From Saxidomus purpurata (Eukaryota; Mollusca; Bivalvia; Venerida; Veneridae), in assembly GCA_022818135.1 (NCBI GenBank), contig JAFMSR010000016.1:43076093-43140092 (forward strand): DNA of 64,000 nucleotides, in the 5' to 3' direction. Position 1 is the first letter of the stretch, and each line of letters opens with the position of its first letter. A program made the position numbers and the translations under genes. The notes under the pieces were generated by a model. The model made no database searches. It had not been told where the DNA came from and worked only from the letters and a program-made list of their open reading frames with translations. Shown here in pieces: positions 5,757-59,060 of the stretch.

Positions 5757-6233
5757 AACAAATGTAAATTTCCGGAAGTGCAAAAGTCCAAAACCTCACC
5801 AGTGATCCCCCTTAAAGAACCACCAAGGAGGATTCCTTTATTCAAAAGAAATATCATTGATGAGGAGATAAAGACTTTTGAAGATAAAGGCCTTATTAAA
5901 AAATCTGAGAGTCCATATTCAGCTCCCACTGTTTTAGTTAGAAAGAAAGATGGAACGTGGAGAATGTGTGTAGACTACAGGATATTAAACGAGAAGACGA
6001 TAAAAGACGCCTACCCTCTTCCAAGAATCGACGAGAATATAGACTCACTTTCATGAGCGTCGTGGTTTACCACACTTGATTGTAACATGGCTTACCATCA
6101 AGTACCAATGGCTGAATCCGATAAGAAAAAGACTGCATTTTTTACGCCAATTGGTGGACTGTACCATTACAATACAATGCCATTCGGTTTGTGTAATGCT
6201 CCTGCGACTTTCGAACGGATTGCTGAACGTGCT

Positions 6234-6921
6234 GTTTGGTGTTCAACCCGTTTACAGTTGGACGCTATGCTTCCCTCTTTGATTGTGTCTGACGGAAGAG
6301 GGGGAGGACTCTGTGATGGGCAGTTTTTAAATCCCACTGGGACGAAACTGTTTTGATTTCTGTCCTCTGGCCTGTTTCGTCGGGCCCTTAAGGGTGTTTC
6401 TCTTGGTGCTCTGCCTTCTGCAAAGGCATTGAGTACATACGTTTTTTGGTTCTCAAGGTTTGCTTTTTATATATTTATACACGAGCATTTTTGTGTTTTA
6501 CATACCATGCCTTTTGTTTCCATTGCGTGTGTTAGAGATTCACCTAGCAGGGATTACTTTTATTTACACTGTCCTGTGACTTTGGAACATGGTGGGGGTA
6601 AGAGTGAGGTTGGGTGCGCACCATAAACCGGTTTAAGCTCCCCAGTGGTGTTTTTGCCACTGACCGTTCCAAGGCGGTGCCCCACTGTGTTCCTTTAATT
6701 GTTCGTTTTGTCCTCGTGTGTTTGCTTTGTATGCTAGTGTGTGTTGGTAGTGTATATATGTGTGTGTACATGATTGTGTGTGTGTGTGTGTCGTGTGTGT
6801 GTGCATGTGCGCGCGTGTGTGTGTGTTGGTGGTGTGCACTTCTGGGTGATGTGGGGTTCGTTTTGGGGAGGCTGCGTTTTTGGTACGTGGCATTCCCTGT
6901 TTGATATTATTTTTGTTTTTT
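6234..6921 (+). mobile_element. Naiad-type Penelope-like element, 5'-truncated copy
   Basis: Starts in the last ~19 codons of the Naiad frame (same as the end of the frame at 47016), then carries the stop codon at 6290, the SECIS-like hairpin, a long 3' UTR with a (TG)n tract (~6775-6825) and the family 3' tail ending TATTATTTTTG plus T-run. It lies between GCT and TTGGATGG of the gypsy RT frame, so both edges are defined to within a few bases. No clear target duplication is visible. It is nearly identical to unit B over the shared part, which suggests recent insertion. Confidence 0.9.
6304..6367 (+). promoter_or_regulatory. SECIS-like element, type II, in the Naiad 3' UTR
   Basis: Helix 1 is GAGGAC (6304-6309) with GTCCTC (6362-6367). 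It is followed by an internal loop and the non-Watson-Crick quartet UGAU (6314-6317) with UGAU (6354-6357), giving the tandem G.A pairs. Helix 2 is nine pairs, 6318-6326 with 6345-6353 (three G.U at the base). The apical part has the unpaired AAA at 6329-6331 and a small extra stem TCCC/GGGA (6332-6335, 6339-6342), the type II layout. It begins 12 nt after the frame's TGA stop (6290-6292). Known role of SECIS: recruits SBP2 and eEFSec so UGA is read as selenocysteine. Confidence 0.85.
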
Positions 6922-7287
6922 TTGGATGGATTACAATGGAAAATCATAGTTCTATACTTGGATGACATCGTTGTTTATAGTCAATCCTTTGAAAATCACA
7001 TTGAAAATCTACATCCTGTTCTCGAGCGGTTGTTAAACGCAGGATTGAAACTCAAATCAAAAAAGAGAAACAGCATTCCTTGAACAAATCAAAAGATGGC
7101 GTAAAACCTGATCAGAAACAAGATAGAAGTAAAATCAACATTGAAGTATCCAAAAAGTGTTAAAGAACTTCGTCAGTTCTTGGGACTTACATCATATTAT
7201 CGGAAATTTGTTCGAAATTACTAAAAAAATACTGAGCCATTGTACAGATTGACACAAAATAATCTTCGCTGGAATTGGGATTCAGAC

Positions 7288-14998: not shown

Positions 14999-15092
14999 AA
15001 AACAAAAAATAATATCAAACAGGGAACGCCACGTACCAAAAACGCAGCCTCCCCAAAACGAACCCCACAGCACCCAGAAGTGCACACCACCA

Positions 15093-15124
<32 letters not shown>

Positions 15125-15360
15125 GACACACACACACAATCATGTACACACACACATATACACTACCAACACACACTAGCATACAAAGCAAACACACGAG
15201 GACAAAACGAACAATTAAAGGAACACAGTGGGGCACCGCCTTGGAACGGTCAGTGGCAAAAACACCACTGGGGAGCTTAAACCGGTTTATGGTGCGCACC
15301 CAACCTCACTCTTACCCCCACCATGTTCCAAAGTCACAGGACAGTGTAAATAAAAGTAAT
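14999..15360 (-). mobile_element. Naiad 3'-end fragment
   Basis: On the minus strand it has the distal 3' UTR of the Naiad family: the CACTGGGGAG/CACCGCC region, the (TG)n tract (~15098-15142) and the family tail at 14999-15040. The 5' part, including coding sequence and SECIS, is missing. It splits a repeat that is uninterrupted at 25362. Confidence 0.85.
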
Positions 15361-17105: not shown

Positions 17106-17187
17106 AAGGAAAGGCTTTCACTGTATCAAATGCATTTTGACACATGTTGACATATATTGTTCCAAACAAATTCTGTTCCTTTCTTTA

Positions 17188-17224
17188 GTACGTGGCTTTC
17201 CCTGTTTGATATTATTTTTGTTTT
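17188..17224 (+). mobile_element. Naiad tail fragment, ~37 bp
   Basis: GTACGTGGC followed by TTCCCTGTTTGATATTATT and a T-rich end is the extreme 3' end of the Naiad family, sitting inside the gypsy RT region in the opposite strand. The extreme 5' truncation is typical of target-primed reverse transcription. Confidence 0.75.
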
Positions 17225-20684: not shown

Positions 20685-20830
20685 TAAATAAATCTCTATT
20701 AAAATATGACATTAAAGGATTTCTCTCCATAACTTCTTTCATTATAATATTTGTGCATGTTTGTTAAAGTATATTTTCAAAATTTTGTATATATTCTTTA
20801 GTCAAATTGATACTGTCATTAAGCAAAGAA

Positions 20831-21144
20831 ATGTTGTTATATTTTCATCCTTCAGGGATTGTTATTCGTTCTAAACCCTCGGCCTCTGTCAAGATGAGGA
20901 GTACCCAGTGGTCTTTTTGCCACTGACCGTTCCAAGGCGGTGCCCCACTGTGTTCCTTTAATTGTTCGTTTTGTCCTCGTGTGTTTGCTTTGTATGCTAG
21001 TGTGTGTTGGTAGTGTATGTGTGAGTGTGTGTCCATGTGTGTGTGTGTGTTGGTGGTGTGCACTTCTGGGTGCTGTGGGGCTCGTTTTGGGGAGGCTGCG
21101 TTTTTGGTACGTGGCATTCCCTGTTTGATATTATTTTTGTTTTT
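20831..21144 (+). mobile_element. Naiad copy with internal deletion
   Basis: 20831-20903 is the very start of the Naiad frame, beginning at its ATG, and matches the minus strand at 50479-50407. It joins at 20904 directly to the distal 3' UTR (CCCAGTGG..), (TG)n tract and tail. The whole coding body and the SECIS are missing. The flanks are the degenerate array. Confidence 0.85.
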
Positions 21145-22521
21145 ATCAATGACGACAATGAAATAATTACTTAAGAAATTTGTTTAAGGTCAACCTTTGG
21201 ATCATTTAAATGCAGTCTTGAAACTGAGCCGGTCATACTTTTTTTCTCAATTTATTGATTTTTGTGATGCACAGAAAAGTTTAGTCTTAAAATCGAGGCG
21301 GTCTATCGGGTGGCTGAAAGGCTAGCCTTAAATTTCATTTAACATGTAGTCACTTGATGAGTATGCCATCGCTCGAAATCTTTAGTATGGAAGCGAAGTA
21401 TGGGACATCCATTAAAATATTACAGATAACTATAAACATGTTTTAATAGAAGTAAATGGCCATAGAAATTGAATGTCAATGACGTTGTGCAAAGACACTT
21501 TTGCTTGTCTCTATTAACAACATTACATATAATGAAGAAACGTTGCCTTCTTTTGGATGCTATCATCAGGCAGAGAAATCATCAATTTCAATATCAAATA
21601 ATTTGACGTTTTATCATTAAGTCATGTTGTACCTAAAAATATTAATCCAAAAAAGCTACACTTCTACATTATTTATTTGAATTATTGGGACTCCGTTTAA
21701 ATATTAGAGACGATTTATGAATTGTTGTTTATATGCCAGTGGACATAATACTTACGTGATGAATCCCAAGACATGTAACGCTCTGATAGTTCCAATGCTT
21801 CACTATGGATGTTGAAAAATTTGGATAGATATGAACATGCTGTACATATGTCTTCGATCTTAGTATCTAAAAGCCAAAGGTGGAGTGCACGCGAGTATTT
21901 GGTACCTGTTATAAGGAAAATCTCATAATTCCACGTTTTATCACTTGATTTATCTGAACAAATGCGACTCTTCTATCGCTACAACTTTTAACTGCTAATT
22001 TCAGTATGCGGTGTCCATTAGAATAGTTCAGAAAGTATATGAATAAGTTGTGTAGATGACTGTCGAGATATTTTCGTAAACTCCACTGAATTGCAATGGA
22101 GCTGAGCAAGGCTAGTTTTTGTAAACTCTTTTAATAAACTTTAGAAACGACGGAGGAAACCTGTTTTGTGTTGAAGGATGCTATCATCAGACATTGACAG
22201 GAAGAGGAAAAATTACTTTCCAAAACAAACAAGTTAACGTTTCTTCCATTTTCCCTTCACTTCGGATATTAATTATCCATATTAATGGCCATAATTCTTC
22301 AAATTTTCTGAATACGTAAGAAGCAGACGAGGATGAGCCATTTGGTACCTGTATTATTTTTAATAGTTAAAGATTAAAGTGAAATCGTTTTTTTCTTTAA
22401 AACTAATTTTTAATTTTATCATTTGATGAATCTAAAAAAATATTACTCTACAATATCAGATATGGTTGTGAAGTGTGGGGTTCCAACCAAAAATATATGA
22501 ACAATATATATATGTATGCTA

Positions 22522-39780: not shown

Positions 39781-40911
39781 TTACACGTCTGTGGCTTCAT
39801 AGCAACGTCCTAGCCATTTTCGTACATCATCGTAGGTACGCTTGTTCTTCTCTAGGTTGTTCAGTTTTTCGCAAAGGTTGCAAACGGCATCATTGTACAA
39901 TCTATACGCCAAAATAACATCATATCTATTTTTATTTTTCAAGTAGCTCGTATACCTATTTTCGTCAGCTGCAACCTCTTTCAGGTATGCAGCCAAACTT
40001 GCAATGTTTTTGAAATTAGCGGTGTCAATATATGAACCATCTGGAAGGTAACTATGATAATTAGTTTTTCCTCGAAGAACTGTGATCACGTCTAACATGT
40101 TATAACGAAAGAATTTTTCAGTCATATAATTTTCACAAAGAGAGTTTTCAAAACCAAGATAGAACTTGTACGTTTTATTTATAAAGTTTAACAAATCATC
40201 AGGAGCCTTTTTTCCACATTTTCCAAATACATCAACGTCATAGTAACGTTTAAGAATATTGACATAATTGTCTCTCTTGCTTTCTGCCCTGCAATTGCTT
40301 ACAACCCAAGCAACTTCCTTTGTTTTGTTTCTAAAAATAGCAGTGTAATTTTTTAAAGGTATATTCTTTTTTTCTGTTAGTACTCCATAAGGAAAGAATA
40401 TATCCGCGTTTGGGTGATACGTCCAGGACCAGTTGAAAACGTGTTTCCAGTGCGGACGTAGGTAGTCGGGTCTAAGATTTATTGGCGGCTCAATAGTAAA
40501 AAATACCCAGACTTGGTTTGGATTTCTTAATTCTGGTGACACAGGTGGTTTATGTCCCATTCCCGAAGCATGTAAATGGAAAACGACTGAACTGCTTTGA
40601 TTGAATACTGACCGGTCAAGTGACTGTCTACAGTTTTTATAGTTTATGCACTGATCCAATTTCGCGGTCGAGACCGTCTTTTTATACCAGTCTGGAACAT
40701 TCCAAAGTAAAATTGTATGGACAATTCTGTCTTTTGTCATGCCGTTTGCATGGAACACAGGGTTAATGTGTGGAAATGTTTTACCTGCGATTATGTTTCT
40801 GTTATATGTTCTAATCTGTAACCGGACGTTGAGGCTGTAGTAAACCAATACCAAAACAAAGCTCATTGTTAGTGTCTTTCTAGGATGCGCACGAACAGAG
40901 GTTAGTAACAT
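39781..40911 (-). CDS. Alpha-1,3-fucosyltransferase (GT10), single exon
   Basis: Transfers fucose from GDP-fucose in alpha-1,3 linkage to GlcNAc on glycans in the Golgi lumen. The 376-residue frame from ATG to TAA is intact, a normal GT10 length. It starts with a short cytosolic tail with R-K, then a membrane anchor at ~13-30 (type II). Landmarks: F-N-W-S-W-T-Y-H-P-N-A-D-I-F-F-P-Y-G (159-176), V-A-W-V-V-S-N-C (200-207), F-G-K-C (229-232), Y-L-G-F-E-N-S-L-C with Y-M-T-E-K-F-F-R (251-269), and S-Y-L-P-D-G-S-Y-I-D (287-296). N-glycosylation sites lie at 104, 160, 188, 195 and 245. The acceptor cannot be told from sequence. It has no coding introns; its surroundings are repeats, so regulation is not readable. 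The best host gene in the window. Confidence 0.95.
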   Translation of the reverse strand: MLLTSVRAHPRKTLTMSFVLVLVYYSLNVRLQIRTYNRNIIAGKTFPHINPVFHANGMTKDRIVHTILLWNVPDWYKKTVSTAKLDQCINYKNCRQSLDRSVFNQSSSVVFHLHASGMGHKPPVSPELRNPNQVWVFFTIEPPINLRPDYLRPHWKHVFNWSWTYHPNADIFFPYGVLTEKKNIPLKNYTAIFRNKTKEVAWVVSNCRAESKRDNYVNILKRYYDVDVFGKCGKKAPDDLLNFINKTYKFYLGFENSLCENYMTEKFFRYNMLDVITVLRGKTNYHSYLPDGSYIDTANFKNIASLAAYLKEVAADENRYTSYLKNKNRYDVILAYRLYNDAVCNLCEKLNNLEKNKRTYDDVRKWLGRCYEATDV

Positions 40912-41389
40912 TTCTGTCCCTCACTGAACACATGCACTCTGGAATGAGATTAATGATATAATTTAAAAAAAGGAAGACACAAATAATCTTGAAATATTAT
41001 TTACCTCAAAACTCTATTCTATAAGGATACATCTGGCAGCAAGTCATATGCATTTTAACACATTTCAGGCAATACATCGTTTCTGATTCGTTCCGTCTAT
41101 TAAACGGCTTGGTACGTTAAGGGCCGCTTTTCAACTGTTTTCAAATTTCACGTACATTTATATCTTCGTAATCAAACTGAAATGATGTGTATACAATTAA
41201 ACAAAACAAATCCGTGTTCCAAGTCACAATTCATTCTCATCTAGAACGATTTTTTCATGTAAGAGCACATAAAATCCAAATTTGCATACGAGGATATTTT
41301 ATTGATACAATCTCAAGTATTTGCAAAAAGAAAGAGTTGTCATATTAAAGACATGATACACTGCGGAAAACTGGTTAATAAACGAGAGT
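40912..41389. other. No gene recognised; upstream flank of the fucosyltransferase gene
   Basis: AT-rich; no clear TATA box or 5' exon could be supported. Confidence 0.4.
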
Positions 41390-45863: not shown

Positions 45864-45977
45864 GTTATGTACTGTGTTCACGCTATGTCCGTGTCCTTGT
45901 TTTCTGACTCAATCGCGGGCAACGATTCGTAATAGGCCTTGTACATGTCTGGAATAATGTCCTTACATAAATTGATC
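45864..45977 (-). other. Short open frame between gypsy copy and Naiad array
   Basis: On the minus strand 33 codons, L-I-N-L-C-K-D-I-I-P-D-M-Y-K-A-Y-Y ending E-N-K-D-T-D-I-A and a stop, are cut at the 5' side by the Naiad insertion. It looks like the C-terminus of a real protein, unidentified; it may be chance. Confidence 0.25.
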
Positions 45978-46396
45978 AAAAAAACAAAAATAATATCAAA
46001 CAGGGAATGCCACGTACCAAAAACGCAGCCTCCCCAAAACGAACCCCACAGCACCCAGAAGCGCACACCACCAACACACACACACACACGCACACGCACA
46101 CACACACGACACACACAATCATGTACACACACACATATACACTACCAACACACACTAGCATACAAAGCAAACACACGAGGACAAAACGAACAATTAAAGG
46201 AACACAGTGGGGCACCGCCTTGGAACGGTCAGTGGCAAAAACACCACTGGGGAGTTTAAACCGGTTTATGGTGCGCACCCAACCTCACTCTTACCCCCAC
46301 CATGTTCCAAAGTCACAGGACAGTGTAAATAAAAGTAATCCCTGCTAGGTGAATCTCTAACACACGCAATGGAAACAAAAGGCATGGTATGTAAAA
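45978..46396 (-). mobile_element. Naiad unit A: downstream pseudo-LTR
   Basis: A 5'-truncated unit (distal 3' UTR, (TG)n tract, tail) directly abutting unit B. It shares its truncation point (GGCATGGTATGTAAAA on plus), its microsatellite pattern and the variant AGCGCACACC with unit C. These shared details mark A and C as a pseudo-LTR pair around B. Confidence 0.9.
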
Positions 46397-46940
46397 AAAC
46401 AAAAATAATATCAAACAGGGAATGCCACGTACCAAAAACGCAGCCTCCCCAAAACGAACCCCACAGCACCCAGAAGTGCACACCACCAACACACACATAC
46501 ACACACACGCACACACACACGCACACACACACAATCATGTACACACACACATATACACTACCAACACACACTAGCATACAAAGCAAACACACGAGGACAA
46601 AACGAACAATTAAAGGAACACAGTGGGGCACCGCCTTGGAACGGTCAGTGGCAAAAACACCACTGGGGAGCTTAAACCGGTTTATGGTGCGCACCCAACC
46701 TCACTCTTACCCCCACCATGTTCCAAAGTCACAGGACAGTGTAAATAAAAGTAATCCCTGCTAGGTGAATCTCTAACACACGCAATGGAAACAAAAGGCA
46801 TGGTATGTAAAACACAAAAATGCTCGTGTATAAATATATAAAAAGCAAACCTTGAGAACCAAAAAACGTATGTACTCAATGCCTTTGCAGAAGGCAGAGC
46901 ACCAAGAGAAACACCCTTAAGGGCCCGACGAAACAGGCCA

Positions 46941-47004
46941 GAGGACAGAAATCAAAACAGTTTCGTCCCAGTGGGATTTAAAAACTGCCCATCACAGAGT
47001 CCTC
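46941..47004 (-). promoter_or_regulatory. SECIS-like element of Naiad unit B
   Basis: Identical over 64 bases to 6304-6367 (helix 1 GAGGAC/GTCCTC, UGAU/UGAU quartet, nine-pair helix 2, apical AAA, extra mini-stem). It starts 12 nt after the stop at 47016-47018. Confidence 0.88.
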
Positions 47005-47015
47005 CCCCTCTTCCG

Positions 47016-50000
47016 TCAGACACAATCAAAGAGGGAAGCATAGCGTCCAACTGTAAACGGGTTGAACACCAAACATGCGGTGTGTCTCAAAACAGTTGGG
47101 TCGTAACCTCTTTTAACAAAACGTTTTATAATTTTAGCAAATACAGTTGGAAAATTGCCATGACCCAAAATCTTACGAAGTTTGTAAACCACATCCCCAT
47201 AAAAATCGGGTTTTGAAATACCTTCTCGCAGAAGAGTCTTTAGATTACTATTGAATTTCAAAACCAAATCAGAATTACGATAGTAAAATTTAGCAAAATA
47301 TTTACGCAATTGTAATAACGGTAGCCCTGTTGAAGAAGTTTATTTGTAATATATTGATTACGTTCATTGAAATCCTCAACATAACTACACGCTCTGGCAA
47401 ACCGAATTAACTGAGAAATGTATACCCCATAAGATGTAGCATGAGGTACATCCCCATCCAAATGGGGGAAATTTACAATACTAAAATTAAAATCATCCCT
47501 CTTGTCATAAATTTTGGTATGTATAATATTGTTATAAATAGAGAGATGTAAATCTAAAAATGAAGCACCAGTATCCAAATTGTTAGTTTTAATTAACTGG
47601 AGTTCCCGGGGATAAATAGTGTCCACCAATTGACCAAAAAACGGGTTATCCATATTAAGAATATCATCCAGATAGCGTGATGTATTATTAAAAGCAGTGA
47701 AAATGTCTGCCTGCGTGTCTGGAGAAAGACTCAACATAAAGTCTCTTTCATAACAATATAAAAACAAATCTGCGACAAGGGGTGCACAATTTGTTCCCAT
47801 GGGAATACCGATTACTTGTCTGAAAACTGCATTCCCAAACCTTATATAAATGTTGTTCAATAAAAAGGAAAGGGCTTTACAAACTTCGTCACAGGTCCAC
47901 ATAGTATAATGTTTAACAATACAGCTAGTAAAAAAAGCTTTATCGAAATTGCAGGCGAGAAATGTAACATTCTCCCTGGCAAAAGTCTTTTGAATTAGGG
48001 CAGTTAGCTTGTCATTTATCAAATTATGTGGTAAAGTGGTATACAGAGTAGAAAAATCGTATGTACTGACTGAAGTTACTTTGTAATTATTAACTTTAAA
48101 CTTATCCAGGATTTCGCCAGAATTTTTGATCGACCAAAATAAATGTTTACCAGAGTTTTCGTATACTTTATCACAATATCTTTTCACGTGGGCTTTTATA
48201 GCAGTTAGGCAAGATGTTAATAGTTTTGAAATATTTGTAGTGGTACAAGAGCTTGAATTAGCGATGAAACGAGCTTTATATGGTTGTTTATGTAATTTAG
48301 GAATCCAGTACATAGTAGGAAGTTTAATATGTTGATCATCTATACGAACTTTCAAATTAGAAACTTCACTGATGTGATCAGTGACCACATTTTGTTCATC
48401 GGAAGGACTCAATATATAAGCTTTAGTGCTATTTAGTTCGTTTTGTAAAACATTAATATAATGTAGGCGTCAAATGATGATAATATTGTTGGCCGCCTTG
48501 TCTGCTGGAACTAAGACATACTTAGAATGAAATTCTTGGATTTCCTTTTTCAGATGTCTTAAAGTAAACTTGGGTTTTGATGGAAGTAGGTGTTCATTTG
48601 TTTGGTAAAATTTTATACGAGAATCGACAATGTTAAAAATACTTCGTTTCCAAGACGTTAATGCATTTGGATCAGCATTCTCACGACGACACCATTTAAC
48701 ACAAAAAGTTTCGATGGATTCCGCAATATGACCACGACAAGCATGAAAATCAATAGTAGAAGGAATTCTGTATTTTGGTCCTTTAAAGAATAAATTACGA
48801 ATACGCTTGTCTTTAATAATATCAAAATTACCAGTGATGACATGACCGGCATCTGAATAGCAAAATTTCGAGTTTTTACATTCGCAGTAAGAAGGGGTAT
48901 TTGTTTGAACATCTAGGTCGGAAACAATTTTATTGTAATTGAATATTACATTTCTAACAGGTGTTTTATATTTATAACAGATAATAGGAACTTCGGAGTT
49001 TCGGAAATACTTAGGCACAGAATCAATGACACGTCTATCACGAAATATACTGGGTATATCGATGAAGTCAATACCTTTATTAATGAAATGAATTTTAAGA
49101 AAATGTCTATCATGATCAGATTGAGTGTCAATATGTGGACGGAGAACGTGTTGTGTGTAATGTTGGATAAGATATGACACAGTGTAAAACGGATCAGTTT
49201 GAATAACGTACTGGTCCGCTTCCTCGTCTAGTTTTTTAAGAGACTGAATAGATAAAGATGTGAGACGAGAAAGCATTGAATGTCTACCAGAGTTTGAAAG
49301 AATTATATCGAGGTCTGCAACAGAAATATTGACTTTTGATTTGCGCTTAATATTACCATTGCGTCTAATTCCATGAGACCTAGATTTACGTTTCCTAATA
49401 TTCAAAATTGAAAATATATCGATATCAGGGTTTTTAGAGATATTACCTTCTTGATAAATATTATCATTTAAGCCCAACGGAAACGGTGACTGTAAATTTG
49501 TAATCCATTTGAATTCTGCTAAATGTCTGGCTTTGATTTTAAAACTAGATGTACAATTTATATCATAGACGATTTGCTCTACTGGCTGAATGGTTACCTG
49601 ATCAATTGTATGGCCAGATTTACGAAAGTGTTGATATAAAAATGTAGTGAACTTCTTCCGACTTCGCATTTTGTAAGAATGCTCGCGGAAACGAATTTTT
49701 AAAGATCGCCCAGTTTGCCCAACATACTGAATACCACAATTGGGTGCGTTTCAAGTCAGTACATAAATCATGTGGGACGCATTTCAATCAACGTCAGAGT
49801 TAAGTACCACATTAAAAGTTCTGCCGTTAACATTTGAGGTAATTGTAGACCTGTGCGATAAATGATTGCAACAACCGCACCTCTTAGCATTGCACTTGTT
49901 AATAGAACGGTACCCTCTACATCTCTGCGGAAAATTTGTATGTTTAATTTTATATTTCTTCAGTATAGTAGAAGTTAAAGGTGACAGACGAATACGCAGA

Positions 50001-50479
50001 CTACTACGAAAAACAGCCGGAGAATTAAAATGAGTACGTGGAATATAAAATGACCGTGCAGAATGTAGCTTTAAAGGAGAAAGGCAGATAGATGGTGTAT
50101 GTCTTAAAAAAGTACTGTTGTTATTAGGCAGATGTACAGATGATGCAGAGTGTAACCGAAGAGGTGAAAGAATTAATTTCGGAACTATATTATATGTACT
50201 CATGTAATGTAATTTTGTAATACCATTCTGTGAAAAGTGGCGTTCGGGTAGAAAAGTCATCAGTATCAATTCGTCAAGTGAAAATATTAAGCGACAATTA
50301 AACACAACCTGGTTAATCGCGCTGGAGGTCGCACAATACAATAGGACGGGATAACTAGCATGGACCCGAATGCCAGTGAACACAGAACCTTCAACACGGT
50401 ATAAAATACTCCTCATCTTGACAGAGGCCGAGGGTTTAGAACGAATAACAATCCCTGAAGGATGAAAATATAACAACAT
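47016..50479 (-). CDS. Naiad polyprotein: GIY-YIG endonuclease, CxC linker, PLE reverse transcriptase; probable selenoprotein
   Basis: Makes the element's own copying and nicking enzyme: GIY-YIG cuts the target and the RT primes from it. It has ~1154 codons from the ATG at 50479. Residues 1-230: basic Ser-rich region ending in a Cys cluster (K-C-N-A-K-R-C-G-C-C-N-H). ~237-300: GIY-YIG (I-Y-V-L-T; Q-Y-V-G-Q-T-G-R-S; F-R-E-H; Y-Q-H-F-R-K-S-G-H). ~532: C-E-C linker. ~700-1060: RT with Y-D-F-S-T-L-Y-T-T-L (807), G-I-P-M-G-T-N-C-A-P (891) and R-Y-L-D-D-I-L (935). TGA at codons 232, 243 and 670 is in frame and lies where relatives have Cys. A missing A near 47309 shifts the frame for the last ~97 codons, which are otherwise open to the stop at 47016. 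Selenocysteine decoding is inferred from the SECIS. Confidence 0.9.
48470..48472 (-). other. In-frame TGA 3 (codon 670), putative selenocysteine
   Basis: A-D-K-A-A-N-N-I-I-I-I then TGA then R-L-H-Y-I-N-V-L: relatives of this RT usually have Cys or another residue after this hydrophobic strand. The frame is open on both sides. Confidence 0.8.
48878..48886 (-). other. CxC motif codons of the Naiad linker
   Basis: TGC-GAA-TGT encodes C-E-C within S-Y-C-E-C-K-N-S-K-F-C, the short Cys domain between endonuclease and RT described for N-terminal-endonuclease PLEs. Confidence 0.85.
49751..49753 (-). other. In-frame TGA 2 (codon 243), putative selenocysteine
   Basis: I-Y-V-L-T then TGA then N-A-P-N-C-G-I-Q-Y-V-G: the position of the conserved Cys in the PLE endonuclease CCHH motif. 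Confidence 0.85.
49784..49786 (-). other. In-frame TGA 1 (codon 232), putative selenocysteine
   Basis: N-S-D-V-D then TGA then N-A-S-H-M-I-Y-V-L-T, just before the GIY-YIG core. The frame is open on both sides. Confidence 0.8.
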
Positions 50480-50544
50480 TGATTGAATGTACGGGGAGAC
50501 TTTTTACGGCCGCCACACGGCACAAACAACACAGTTGTGAGCAT

Positions 50545-50961
50545 AAAAACAAAAATAATATCAAACAGGGAATGCCACGTACCAAAAACGCAGCCTCCCC
50601 AAAACGAACCCCACAGCACCCAGAAGCGCACACCACCAACACACACACACACACGCACACGCACACACACACGACACACACAATCATGTACACACACACA
50701 TATACACTACCAACACACACTAGCATACAAAGCAAACACACGAGGACAAAACGAACAATTAAAGGAACACAGTGGGGCACCGCCTTGGAACGGTCAGTGG
50801 CAAAAACACCACTGGGGAGCTTAAACCGGTTTATGGTGCGCACCCAACCTCACTCTTACCCCCACCATGTTCCAAAGTCACAGGACAGTGTAAATAAAAG
50901 TAATCCCTGCTAGGTGAATCTCTAACACACGCAATGGAAACAAAAGGCATGGTATGTAAAA
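50545..50961 (-). mobile_element. Naiad unit C: upstream pseudo-LTR
   Basis: Same content and same 5' truncation point as unit A, with an identical (CA)n pattern and the AGCGCACACC variant; only about one base differs in the region I compared (GAGCTTAAACC versus GAGTTTAAACC). Confidence 0.9.
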
Positions 50962-51053
50962 AAACAAAAATAATATCAAACAGGGAATGCCACGTACCAA
51001 AAACGCAGCCTCCCCAAAACGAACCCCACAGCACCCAGAAGTGCACACCACCA

Positions 51054-51084
<31 letters not shown>

Positions 51085-51229
51085 CACACGACACACACAC
51101 ACAATCATGTACACACACACATATACACTACCAACACACACTAGCATACAAAGCAAACACACGAGGACAAAACGAACAATTAAAGGAACACAGTGGGGCA
51201 CCGCCTTGGAACGGTCAGTGGCAAAAACA
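50962..51229 (-). mobile_element. Naiad unit D: outermost truncated unit
   Basis: Shorter 5'-truncated tail unit ending at GTGGCAAAAACA, in tandem with unit C. It has a different (CA)n pattern and AGTGCACACC, so it is not the same template as A and C. Confidence 0.88.
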
Positions 51230-54952: not shown

Positions 54953-56476
54953 TACTCAGCAAAAATAGAAACGTCCCTCCATATTTCAGGAAAGATTTAT
55001 CGAAAACCAAAAGGGTTACGTTTATGAATCAAAATAGAAAAACAAGTTCATTCATTTCTGTATCAAAACCAATTAATTGCATCTGGCTATCTTGTTAACT
55101 TTTAGATAACCGGTCAAGAGAGGTAGGGGTCAAAATCAAAAATCACAAAAACTCAGAAAGGTGTTATTGAATGTTTAGAGATTGAATTTCAATAAGAAAT
55201 GTGGCACATCCAGTAAATCTCGATAGTACCGAGTGTGGCCACCATTTGCATGAATGCCTGCAATGATCCTACGCCGCATCGACGTAACGTAACGCAATAC
55301 CAGTGCGTTGGGCAAATTTCTCCATTCCTGTTGTAACGCCCGTGTAAGATCGCGAACATTGTCAATCTGATGGTTAGCTCGTGCTATGCGGCCCAGCTGA
55401 TCCCATATATGCTCAATGGGGTTGAGATCCGGGGAAACCGCGGGCCATGGCATGACGTTGACATTGTTTTGCTGCAAGAATTGAGTGGTGACCCTGGCTA
55501 CAAGAGGGCGAGCATTGTCCTGCATCAATGTTACACCAGGACCATGCTGACGAATAAATGGTAAGGCATATGCATTTAGCACGTCTGCAACATAACGCTG
55601 TGCATTAATGTTGCCCTGTACAACAACCAAATCTGTCTTCCGGTTTCCCATGATCCCACCCCAGACCATTAAGCTCACTCCCCCAAACCTGTTCTTCTAA
55701 ACAATGCAACAAGCGGCGAATCTTTCATTTTTACGCCTGTATACCCTAAATCTTCCGTCAGTAAGCCCTTCTCCAGTTCAGATGACGTCGCGCTCATACC
55801 AGCCTGTCAGCATTGTGACGGTGAGTCATTATCTGACCAGTGTACGGGCGGCGTGCCCTGATTGGTTGGGCGTTACGACGCAACCGGTTGCGAATGGTCT
55901 GCCCTGAGACACCGTATTGCCTAGCAGTGACTGTGGCTGCCAATTGACGTTGACTTAAGTGCGTCAACGTAATGAAACGATCGGCTCTAGCCGTCGTTAC
56001 ACGAGGCCTACCAGGTCGCTGCCGGTCGTGAACAGCCCCAGTCTGCTGGTACCGGGCTGCAAGACGATCAATCGTCTTCCGACAGCACCCGAACCGACGC
56101 GCGACTACCCTGGCGGACATCCCACCCGCAAGCATCCCAATTGCCTGATTTCGCTCGTTTTCGGAAAGCCGTGGCATATCGAAAACAGTGAAAAATTAAA
56201 GAAAAAAATAATTTTCGGAATAGCCCCTATCGCATGAATGGTACGACATGAACTGAATCAACATATGGATGACATGTATAGCGTGCACGCGCAAAACGTG
56301 CAAATGACCGTTCCGGTTACTGGCCGATATGTAAACCGTGCGTATCGGGTAAACTGTACACGACCGTATTCTGAACATCGCCAGGGTTTAAAATACATGT
56401 ACATTGAACATGTAGCAACTACACAGACAAAGCTTCACCGGCTATAAAACAGGGACGTTTCTAGTTTTGCTGAGTA
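54953..56476 (-). mobile_element. Tc1-like (mariner superfamily) transposon
   Basis: Ends are ~26-base inverted repeats, TACTCAGCAAAA then TAGAAACGTCCCT, with one mismatch (54953-54978 and 56451-56476), bounded by TA. Length is 1524 bases, usual for Tc1. It holds one broken transposase gene on the minus strand. Confidence 0.92.
55175..56177 (-). pseudogene. Tc1-like DDE transposase, broken
   Basis: The N-terminal frame (56177-55794) starts M-P-R-L-S-E-N-E-R and carries the two helix-turn-helix DNA-binding units (A-R-R-F-G-C-C-R-K-T-I-D-R; V-S-G-Q-T-I-R-N-R-L) with G-R-P-R between. The catalytic part (55678-55175) has L-M-V-W-G-G, M-Q-D-N-A-R-P with the second Asp and S-P-D-L-N-P-I-E-H-I-W-D with the catalytic Glu of a DD34E-type triad. 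Between them (55680-55794) the region with the first catalytic Asp (usually S-D-E-S-R-F) is deleted and a TAG follows. It cannot be active. Confidence 0.92.
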
Positions 56477-57249: not shown

Positions 57250-58860
57250 TCACAATAAGTTTGTTTACACTATAGCATTTACATTTTTTAACAATCATAA
57301 TAAAACTGGAACACAATTTATATGGCCACAAGACCTCAAATTATGGACTTGATCTGATCAGTACTTGCTGAATAATGGCCTCTGATTTAACAAAAAATGC
57401 AAAATTTAACTATGTTTACACTCTAGGACCTTCATTTCTTCACTAACTCTAGACATATTTACAGAGAATGTGTATGACCATAAGATCTCGGACGAGTTCA
57501 ATTAGGGACTTGATTGGATTAGTTCTTCCTGATATAGCAAAAAAGGTTATATTTAACTTTGTTTACACTCTAGCAACTTCATTTCTTCTTTAATCCTTAT
57601 CATATTTACAGAGAATGTGTATGACCATAAGATCTCAGATGAGTTTAAATTATGGGCTTGATCACATCTGTTCTTCCAGAGCAATGGTCCTTGATTTAAC
57701 AAAAAATGAAATATATAACTGTGTTGACACTCTAGCAATTCAATTTTTCATTTATCCTAATCATATTTACAGAGTATATGTATTACCATTAGATCTCGGA
57801 TGAGTCTAATTATGGACCTGATTGGAGTAGTTTTTCTAGAGTTATGGCACTTGATTTAACAAAAAATATTATATTTAACTCTGTCTACACTCTAGCACCT
57901 TTATTTCTTCTTTAATCTTTATCATATTTACAGAGAATGTGTCTGATCATAAGATCTACGATGAGTTTTATTATGGTATGATCAAATTTGTTCTTCTAGA
58001 GTTATGGCCCTTGAATTAACAAAAATTGCAATATATAACTGTGTTTACACTCTAGCACCTTCAATTTTTCACTTATCCTAATCATATTTACAGAGAATGT
58101 GAATGACTATTAGATATCGGATGAGTTCAATTATAGGATTGGTTCTTCCGAGTTACGGCCCTTGATTTAACATAAAATGTTATATTTAACTCTGTTTACA
58201 CTCTAGCACCTTCATTTCTTCATTAATCATAATTACATTTACAGAGATTGTGTATGATCATAAGATCTCGGATGAGTTCAGTTATGGGCTTGATCTGATT
58301 AGTCCTTATAGAGTTATGTCCCTTGATTTAACAAAAAATGCTATATTTGTCTCTGTCTACACTCAAGCACCTTCATTTCTGCTTTAATCCTAACTATATT
58401 TACAGAGAATGTGTATGACCATTAGATCTCATATGAGTTTAATTATGATTGTGAACAGATTTGTTCTTCCAGAGTTATGGCCCTTGATTTAACAAAAATT
58501 GCAACATATTACTGTGTTTACACTCTAGCACCTTCAGTTTTTCATTTATACTAATCATATTTAGAAAGAATGTGAATGACCGTTAGATCTTGGATGAATT
58601 TAATTATGGGCTTGGTTCTTCTAGAGTTAAGGCCCTTGATTTAACAAAAAAAAAACTATATTTAACACTGTTTACACTCTAGCACCTTCATTTCTTCTTT
58701 AATCCTAATCATATTTACAAAGAATGTGTAATTATGATCATAAGATCACGGATGAGTTCAGTTATGGGCTTGATCGAGGTAGTTCTTCCAGTGTTATGGC
58801 CCTTGATTTAACAAAAATTGCAATATTTAACCGTGTTTACACTCCAGCACCTTAATTTCT
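57250..58860 (+). repeat. ~160-bp tandem array, about ten units
   Basis: The block 'CACTCTAGCACCTTCATTTC' or its variants recurs near 57427, 57565, 57728, 57888, 58046, 58200, 58360, 58520, 58676 and 58838, at steps of about 140 (first) and then 154-163 bases. Two unit types tend to alternate, one with 'TTCATTTCTTCTTTAATCC', one with 'TTCAATTTTTCATTTATCC', giving a ~320-bp higher-order step for part of the array. A ~160-bp satellite called BIV160 is known across bivalves; identity to it is untested. Confidence 0.85.
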
Positions 58861-59060
58861 TTTTTTCTTTCGTGTTTATGAAACTTTGCAGGGATGTTCC
58901 TTGCATGAAGCTCTGCCAATTTTTTTCAAAGAATTCCGTTCCATGTAGAAAACTTGTTGCCATGGCAACAAATAGAAAAAACGTTAAAAATCTTCTCTGA
59001 AACCACAAAGCCTAGATCTTATTTATTTAGCATGTAGCATGTAACTTTGATGTTTGGCGC
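58861..59060 (+). repeat. Dispersed repeat following the 160-bp array
   Basis: 'GTTTATGAAACTTTGCAGG', 'TTCCATGTAGAA', 'TTGCCATGGCAAC' and 'AAATCTTCTCTGAAACCAC' are a block order I know from bivalve repeats. It seems to be part of the same composite element as 57175-58860. Confidence 0.55.

What the first reader, a model, noticed from the sequence alone, without database searches (positions are those of the whole stretch)
46397..50544. Near-intact Naiad retroelement whose polyprotein is a probable three-Sec selenoprotein
Seen: three TGA codons (49784, 49751, 48470) in one reading frame that is otherwise open from 50479 to ~47310, with coding homology running straight through each, and a SECIS fold just after the terminal stop. 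Two of the TGAs flank the GIY-YIG core, where PLE relatives have Cys. Known: Naiad PLEs with N-terminal GIY-YIG and CxC linker occur in invertebrates, and some in clams and spiders encode several selenocysteines. Inference: this copy is such an element and dates the host to a clam-like bivalve. A mobile element that depends on the host Sec machinery is a rare situation.
Basis: partly seen in the sequence, partly recalled or inferred. Interest (0 to 1): 0.9.

Follow-up and report, generated by a model that had tools for sequence, protein, structure and literature searches.

The report
Clam jumping gene encoding selenocysteine
A recently active retroelement in a clam-like genome carries three UGA 'stop' codons exactly where its relatives have key cysteines, plus the RNA signal that makes cells read UGA as selenocysteine, so its jumping enzyme is very probably a selenium-containing protein; elements of this kind were already known.

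Summary
The minus-strand frame 50503-47258 is open except for TGA at 49784, 49751 and 48470. A SECIS_1 element (38.7 bits, cutoff 35) starts 12 nt after the natural stop. In the host genome 43 of 43 scored copies (of 4715 candidates) keep all three TGAs, and 42 of 43 loci hold the SECIS. All three fall on nearly invariant Cys columns (chance 6e-7). Relatives' predicted frames end exactly one residue before these columns (78, 4, 66 of 358 proteins) and before a fourth Cys, the first of the CxC motif (40), but before none of the other six conserved Cys columns. Some relatives have Trp there, as expected if TGA was read as Trp. On a tree the CxC site switched at least 10 times. Domains fit a Naiad Penelope-like element. 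This copy has a frame break near 47310, so 'near-intact' is generous. Selenoprotein Naiads of clams and spiders are, from memory, published. Sec insertion and the host's Sec machinery were not tested (46 genome requests unanswered).

The parts
45973..51229 (-). whole Naiad insertion: partial pLTR, pLTR, ORF, 3' UTR with SECIS, two pLTRs
   Evidence: repeats and BLAST
50961..51229 (-). upstream pseudo-LTR, 5'-truncated (unit positions 163-426)
50546..50971 (-). upstream pseudo-LTR, complete unit, 97.9% to the downstream one
47016..50479 (-). single ORF, ATG at 50479 to natural stop TGA 47016-47018; frame break near 47310 in this copy
   Evidence: 40 of 42 other copies lack the break
49469..49921 (-). 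N-terminal GIY-YIG endonuclease domain (residues 195-345)
   Evidence: AF2 pLDDT 90.8; best PDB matches I-TevI then UvrC, none below E 0.001; 36 of 46 family members hit Pfam GIY-YIG
49784..49786 (-). TGA, proposed Sec240
   Evidence: 43/43 copies TGA; Cys in 42 of 42 other filled rows of A1; 78 relatives' frames end at 239
49751..49753 (-). TGA, proposed Sec251 (first Cys of the CCHH motif)
   Evidence: 43/43 copies TGA; Cys in 43 of 43 other filled rows of A1; Trp in 13 relatives
48878..48886 (-). CxC linker motif (residues 540-542), both Cys here; residue 540 is stop/Trp in many relatives
48470..48472 (-). TGA, proposed Sec678 (end of a strand at the start of the RT)
   Evidence: 43/43 copies TGA; Cys in 43 of 45 other rows of A1, the other two Trp; 66 relatives' frames end at 677
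47312..48886 (-). telomerase-like reverse transcriptase region
46942..47003 (-). SECIS element, Rfam SECIS_1
   Evidence: found in 42 of 43 loci
46396..46821 (-). downstream pseudo-LTR unit 1
45981..46406 (-). downstream pseudo-LTR unit 2
6233..6922 (+). 5'-truncated copy, 98.1% over 690 bp, inside a retroelement RT reading frame
6305..6366 (+). SECIS in the truncated copy, 38.7 bits
14999..15360 (-). pLTR fragment of the same family, 98.3%
20830..21146 (+). fragment: start of ORF joined to pLTR end

Best explanation
It is a recently active Naiad-type Penelope-like retroelement whose single protein (GIY-YIG endonuclease, CxC linker, telomerase-like reverse transcriptase) is a selenoprotein. 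The mRNA, probably driven by the pLTR, carries a SECIS just behind the stop codon. The host's Sec machinery reads the three internal UGAs as selenocysteine, at two metal-site-like cysteines of the endonuclease and one at the start of the RT. The last UGA lies only about 21 nt from the SECIS core and therefore ends the protein. The full-length enzyme then nicks DNA and reverse-transcribes its own RNA, leaving 5'-truncated and tandem copies. Shown here: the codons, their match to conserved Cys columns, the SECIS, the young copies, the domain order. Inferred: Sec insertion, transcription start, nicking and priming (from another PLE), the role of Sec.
For: TGA at all three codons in 43 of 43 copies and SECIS in 42 of 43 loci. 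Ten columns are at least 90% Cys in the 45 other rows of A1, and all three TGAs fall on them; chance 6e-7 for random codons. Predicted frames of relatives (38-99% identity) end one residue before 240 (78), 251 (4), 540 (40) and 678 (66 of 358 proteins) and before none of the other six conserved Cys columns. Trp at 240/251/540/678 in 14/13/16/14 relatives, one with all four. Three Cys-type relatives, L044-L046, have TGC or TGT at all four sites and no SECIS match. SECIS. Domains. Mean divergence among 30 copies 0.8%.
Against: No protein, RNA or 75Se data. Host tRNA-Sec, EFSEC and genome-wide SECIS counts were not obtained. Within the young family the lack of change at the TGAs is weak on its own: 0 of 129 codons against 2.0 expected, P 0.13. 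Which stop codon ends the relatives' frames is not visible in protein records; Trp as a sign of TGA assumes a gene finder that read TGA as Trp. A few relatives have neither Cys, Trp nor a stop in the pairwise alignments: 9 at 240, 1 at 251, 2 at 540, 1 at 678. P0001 itself gives no Pfam match and no PDB sequence match; the GIY-YIG fold match does not reach E 0.001. N/S ratios are only modestly below 1 (0.35-0.52).
Confidence: 0.92

Rival explanations
1. Programmed stops: the TGAs are conserved to make shorter products (an N-terminal piece ending at residue 239, and so on) by termination and low-level readthrough, and Sec insertion is secondary or absent.
For: Sec insertion competes with termination (PMC9599142, abstract in search listing); three consecutive frames of 239, 426 and 403 codons exist.
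Against: The TGAs fall only on Cys columns, where relatives have Cys or Trp, which a mere stop does not need; a SECIS above cutoff is present, while the three nearly full-length Cys-type relatives have no SECIS match. Whether the later frames have starts of their own was not tested.
Confidence: 0.05
2. A decayed element with chance nonsense mutations.
For: This copy does have a frame break, and copies hold other stops (8 in 43 copies, without correction for indels).
Against: 43 of 43 copies share the three TGAs, and the 33 loci whose match starts inside the query show different flanks apart from the pair L019/L032 (by eye); chance of hitting three Cys columns 6e-7.
Confidence: 0.01
3. TGA is reassigned (for example to Trp) in the host or read by a suppressor tRNA.
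For: The frame is open if TGA is read as any residue.
Against: TGA is used only at Cys columns and again as the terminal codon; a SECIS is present. A census of TGA in host genes was not made.
Confidence: 0.01

Closest known systems
Naiad Penelope-like elements, incl. selenoprotein Naiads of clams and spiders (Craig et al. 2021, Mol Biol Evol, msab225; recalled, not held by the library)
   Same: N-terminal GIY-YIG, CxC linker, telomerase-like RT, pseudo-LTRs, several Sec codons (their side recalled)
   Different: Cannot be compared in detail: nothing of the paper was seen here. The four-site map and the repeated switching at the CxC may or may not be in it.
Poseidon PLE of Anolis (PAc; PMC11167929, main text read)
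   Same: PLE with tandem pLTRs, GIY-YIG nuclease and telomerase-like RT; in vitro nicking and internal RT initiation
   Different: C-terminal nuclease, hammerhead ribozyme, no Sec described in the text read
Selenoprotein P
   Same: several UGA-Sec codons in one mRNA
   Different: host gene with two SECIS elements (PMC5133445, start of abstract in search listing); here one SECIS per repeat unit
Cys-type relatives (L044-L046, genome contigs)
   Same: same domains and Cys columns
   Different: TGC or TGT at all four sites, no SECIS match

Membership tests
Naiad (N-terminal EN+ PLE) | GIY-YIG domain N-terminal to the RT | tested here: met
   residues 195-345: I-TevI best PDB match, TM 0.62-0.67 by target length, E 0.02-0.04, none below 0.001; Pfam GIY-YIG in 36 of 46 family members, not in P0001; Y247, Y260, G262, R271, E309 nearly invariant (catalytic roles recalled)
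Naiad (N-terminal EN+ PLE) | telomerase-like RT | tested here: met
Naiad (N-terminal EN+ PLE) | CxC motif between nuclease and RT | tested here: met
   C540 and C542 in 46 of 46 rows of A1
Naiad (N-terminal EN+ PLE) | CCHH motif of PLE nucleases | tested here: met
   columns 251, 256, 275, 292/298 nearly invariant; 251 is TGA here; motif name and which His count are recalled or guessed
Naiad (N-terminal EN+ PLE) | pseudo-LTRs, 5' truncation | tested here: met
   pLTR units on both sides of the window copy; variable 5' ends in 43 loci
Naiad (N-terminal EN+ PLE) | no hammerhead ribozyme | tested here: inconclusive
   no Rfam ribozyme at gathering score in the window; degenerate motifs could be missed
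Naiad (N-terminal EN+ PLE) | insertion in fingers domain (IFD) | not tested
   -
Naiad (N-terminal EN+ PLE) | placement in a published Naiad tree | not testable with these tools
   paper and its consensus sequences not held
Eukaryotic selenoprotein gene | in-frame UGA aligned with Cys in homologues | tested here: met
Eukaryotic selenoprotein gene | SECIS in the 3' UTR | tested here: met
Eukaryotic selenoprotein gene | host Sec machinery (tRNA-Sec, EFSEC, SEPSECS) | not tested
   requests for tRNA-Sec and SEPSECS unanswered; EFSEC not asked
Eukaryotic selenoprotein gene | Sec found in the protein | not testable with these tools
   needs mass spectrometry or 75Se

The most novel reading that the evidence does not exclude
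Across this Naiad clade selenocysteine and cysteine are exchanged at four fixed positions (two metal-site-like cysteines of the nuclease, the first Cys of the CxC linker, one RT cysteine), with the CxC site switching at least ten times. Transposition is thereby gated by host selenium, and because 5'-truncated copies keep the 3' end, the family scatters SECIS elements through the genome, raw material for new selenoproteins.
Probability: 0.35. Interest if true: 0.72.

Novelty: new member of a known kind. Interest (0 to 1): 0.55.

Why it matters
A mobile element that needs the selenium-limited Sec machinery for its own enzyme would link transposon activity to a trace nutrient. With dozens of near-identical copies in one genome and many relatives that switch between Cys and a stop/Trp at the same sites, the clade is a natural experiment on why Sec is gained and lost. 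It also shows how gene prediction that treats TGA as stop breaks such proteins into pieces.

Tried and rejected
Random decay and code reassignment were considered and rejected. Conservation of TGA inside the young family was tested as evidence of selection and is not decisive alone (0 of 129 against 2.0 expected). A cluster of 5' ends at the ATG was suspected; only 7 of 43 start within -30 to +25, and two of these (L019, L032) share a flank, so no claim is made. Scans of genome contigs and viral contigs with P0001 confirmed no relative; viral contigs with alignment A1 likewise; genome contigs with A1 gave seven loci, which I take for animal DNA in bacterial bins. A search of phage records with 278 bases of the 3' end found nothing. 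P0001 alone has no Pfam match and no PDB sequence match. ARAGORN found no tRNA in the window. Column 788 has both Cys (25) and Trp (8) among 120 rows but is not a conserved Cys column, and the Trp there was not taken as TGA. Paper searches for Penelope or Naiad with selenocysteine or selenoprotein and related terms did not list the 2021 Naiad paper, which is not held; so I cannot say what it already reports about site switching. Passages of PMC9912274 and PMC10941475 were looked at and not used.
Full report
What is there. On the minus strand one frame runs from 50503 (ATG at 50479) to 47258, broken only by TGA at 49784-49786, 49751-49753 and 48470-48472, residues 240, 251 and 678 of the 1082-residue read-through. 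Near 47310 the coding homology moves to another frame and ends at a TGA at 47016-47018 (read by eye). Twelve bases later begins a SECIS_1 match of 38.7 bits against a cutoff of 35; the 91-nt stretch folds better than 199 of 200 shuffles (z -3.70). The core of this SECIS is about 21 nt from the last TGA; a minimum of 51 nt between UGA and SECIS is quoted in PMC3737529 (passages seen), so the last TGA should end the protein.

Whole element. Units of about 420 bp stand in tandem on both sides: 50961-51229 (truncated) and 50546-50971 upstream, 46396-46821 and 45981-46406 downstream. This is the pseudo-LTR layout of Penelope-like elements; PMC11167929 (main text read) describes such tandem pLTRs. 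Further copies in the window: 6233-6922 plus (98.1%, with a second SECIS at 6305-6366), 14999-15360, 20830-21146 and 17184-17224.

Copies in the genome. The window lies in an assembly of 1.135 Gb and 4232 contigs. With P0001 as query, 43 of 4715 candidates were scored; all 43 were fetched. TGA stands at residues 240, 251 and 678 in 43 of 43. The SECIS is found in 42 of 43 loci (50 matches, 41 of them identical to the window's); L040, whose match stops near residue 1063, lacks it. The frame break of the window copy is absent in 40 of the 42 others; the exceptions are L016, which has a different gap there, and L040. Mean pairwise divergence of the first 30 is 0.8% (range 0.09-1.6%); N/S is 0.52 for singletons, 0.51 for pairs and 0.38 for variants in three or more copies, so the family is young and the sign of selection modest. 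These copies were chosen for closeness to the window copy, so older ones are under-represented. The absence of change at 129 TGA codons is not decisive (2.0 expected, P 0.13).

Comparison with relatives. A protein search with residues 200-1080 gave 276 relatives, of which 120 were listed. I aligned P0001 with 45 of these 120, chosen for length and coverage (A1). Ten columns are at least 90% Cys in the 45 other rows: 204, 209, 212, 240, 251, 256, 540, 542, 678, 753. All three TGAs of the window copy fall on these ten; for three random codons of 1064 the chance is 6e-7. In the alignment of all 121 (P0001 counted as Cys) the counts are 53 of 53 at 240, 53 of 55 at 251 and 110 of 121 at 678, the rest there being 8 Trp, 2 Arg and 1 Glu.

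Two more searches used the pieces before and between the TGAs (268 relatives, 120 listed; 119 relatives, all listed). The 358 different proteins listed in the three searches were aligned pairwise to P0001. The predicted frames of 78 end exactly at residue 239, 4 at 250, 40 at 539 and 66 at 677. None ends one residue before the other six conserved Cys columns. Of the rest, 17 end elsewhere and 153 have an unaligned tail of more than 6 residues and were not counted. The query pieces and the length window of the search favour proteins of these sizes, so the numbers are not frequencies; but that does not explain the exact positions, and 539 lies inside the query piece. These relatives are 38-99% identical to P0001.

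Some relatives have Trp at these columns: 14 of 73 at 240, 13 of 68 at 251, 16 of 180 at 540, 14 of 124 at 678; P0187 has all four. No other conserved Cys column reached three Trp (one Trp at 256, in P0112). I read this as TGA translated as Trp by a gene finder using code 4; that is an inference. Against it, a few relatives have other residues: 9 at 240, 1 at 251, 2 at 540, 1 at 678.

Switching between Cys and stop/Trp. On a FastTree tree of 177 rows built without the sites themselves, column 678 needs 2 changes and column 540 needs 19. With IQ-TREE (quick) on 93 rows, 540 needs 16, and at least 10 are forced by starred branches. On a tree of the RT region (121 rows) 678 needs 3. So the first Cys of the CxC motif appears to have been exchanged many times. 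Rows dropped: those with too few residues in the region, and all rows with Cys at both sites. Quick trees with long rows can be wrong, and a stop is read here as Sec.

Cys-type controls with DNA. Seven loci from genome contigs encode relatives. Three are nearly full length (L044-L046); they have TGC or TGT at 240, 251, 540 and 678 (other conserved Cys are lost at 753 in L044 and L045 and at 212 in L046, which also has a frame jump). None of the seven has an Rfam match, SECIS included, up to E 0.5; the three hold 887, 2061 and 1185 bases beyond the match. This is a small control.

How it works. Most likely the tandem locus is transcribed from the pLTR, the SECIS in the 3' UTR recruits the host Sec machinery, and the full enzyme nicks DNA and reverse-transcribes its RNA as shown in vitro for the Anolis PLE (PMC11167929). 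The varied 5' ends of 43 copies fit 5' truncation. Sec insertion itself is not shown.

What is known. From memory, Craig et al. 2021 (msab225) described Naiads and stated that in spiders and clams they independently came to encode selenoproteins with several selenocysteines. The paper is not held and seven paper searches did not list it. The finding is therefore a new member of a known kind. What may be new is the four-site map and the repeated switching at the CxC site; I cannot say whether that is in print.

Not done. Host tRNA-Sec, SEPSECS, genome-wide SECIS counts and diverged families in the host could not be examined: 46 requests were unanswered.

Noticed in passing
6233-6922 (+): A 5'-truncated copy sits inside an RT reading frame of another retroelement (Pfam RVT_1 on the left flank; gypsy-like and with clean junctions by eye); it carries a complete SECIS.
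   Followed up: partly
P0015 and P0019 (relatives): Two relatives carry a C-terminal ubiquitin hydrolase (UCH) domain behind the RT (E 9e-31 and 1e-31).
   Followed up: partly
39781-40920 (-): Uninterrupted 379-codon frame for a fucosyltransferase (GT10).
   Followed up: no
55175-55696 (-): DDE_3 transposase fragment.
   Followed up: no
57341-58865: Tandem array of about 161-bp units.
   Followed up: no
L011, L013, L023: Some copies have expanded short repeats inside the pLTR, around unit positions 91-215 or 230-343.
   Followed up: no
L003, L005, L012, L015, L017, L024, L033, L035: The upstream pLTR is preceded by sequence like that before the downstream pLTR, as in tandem dimers (by eye).
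   Followed up: no
20830-21146 (+): Start of the ORF (74 bp) joined directly to a pLTR end: an internally deleted or composite copy.
   Followed up: no
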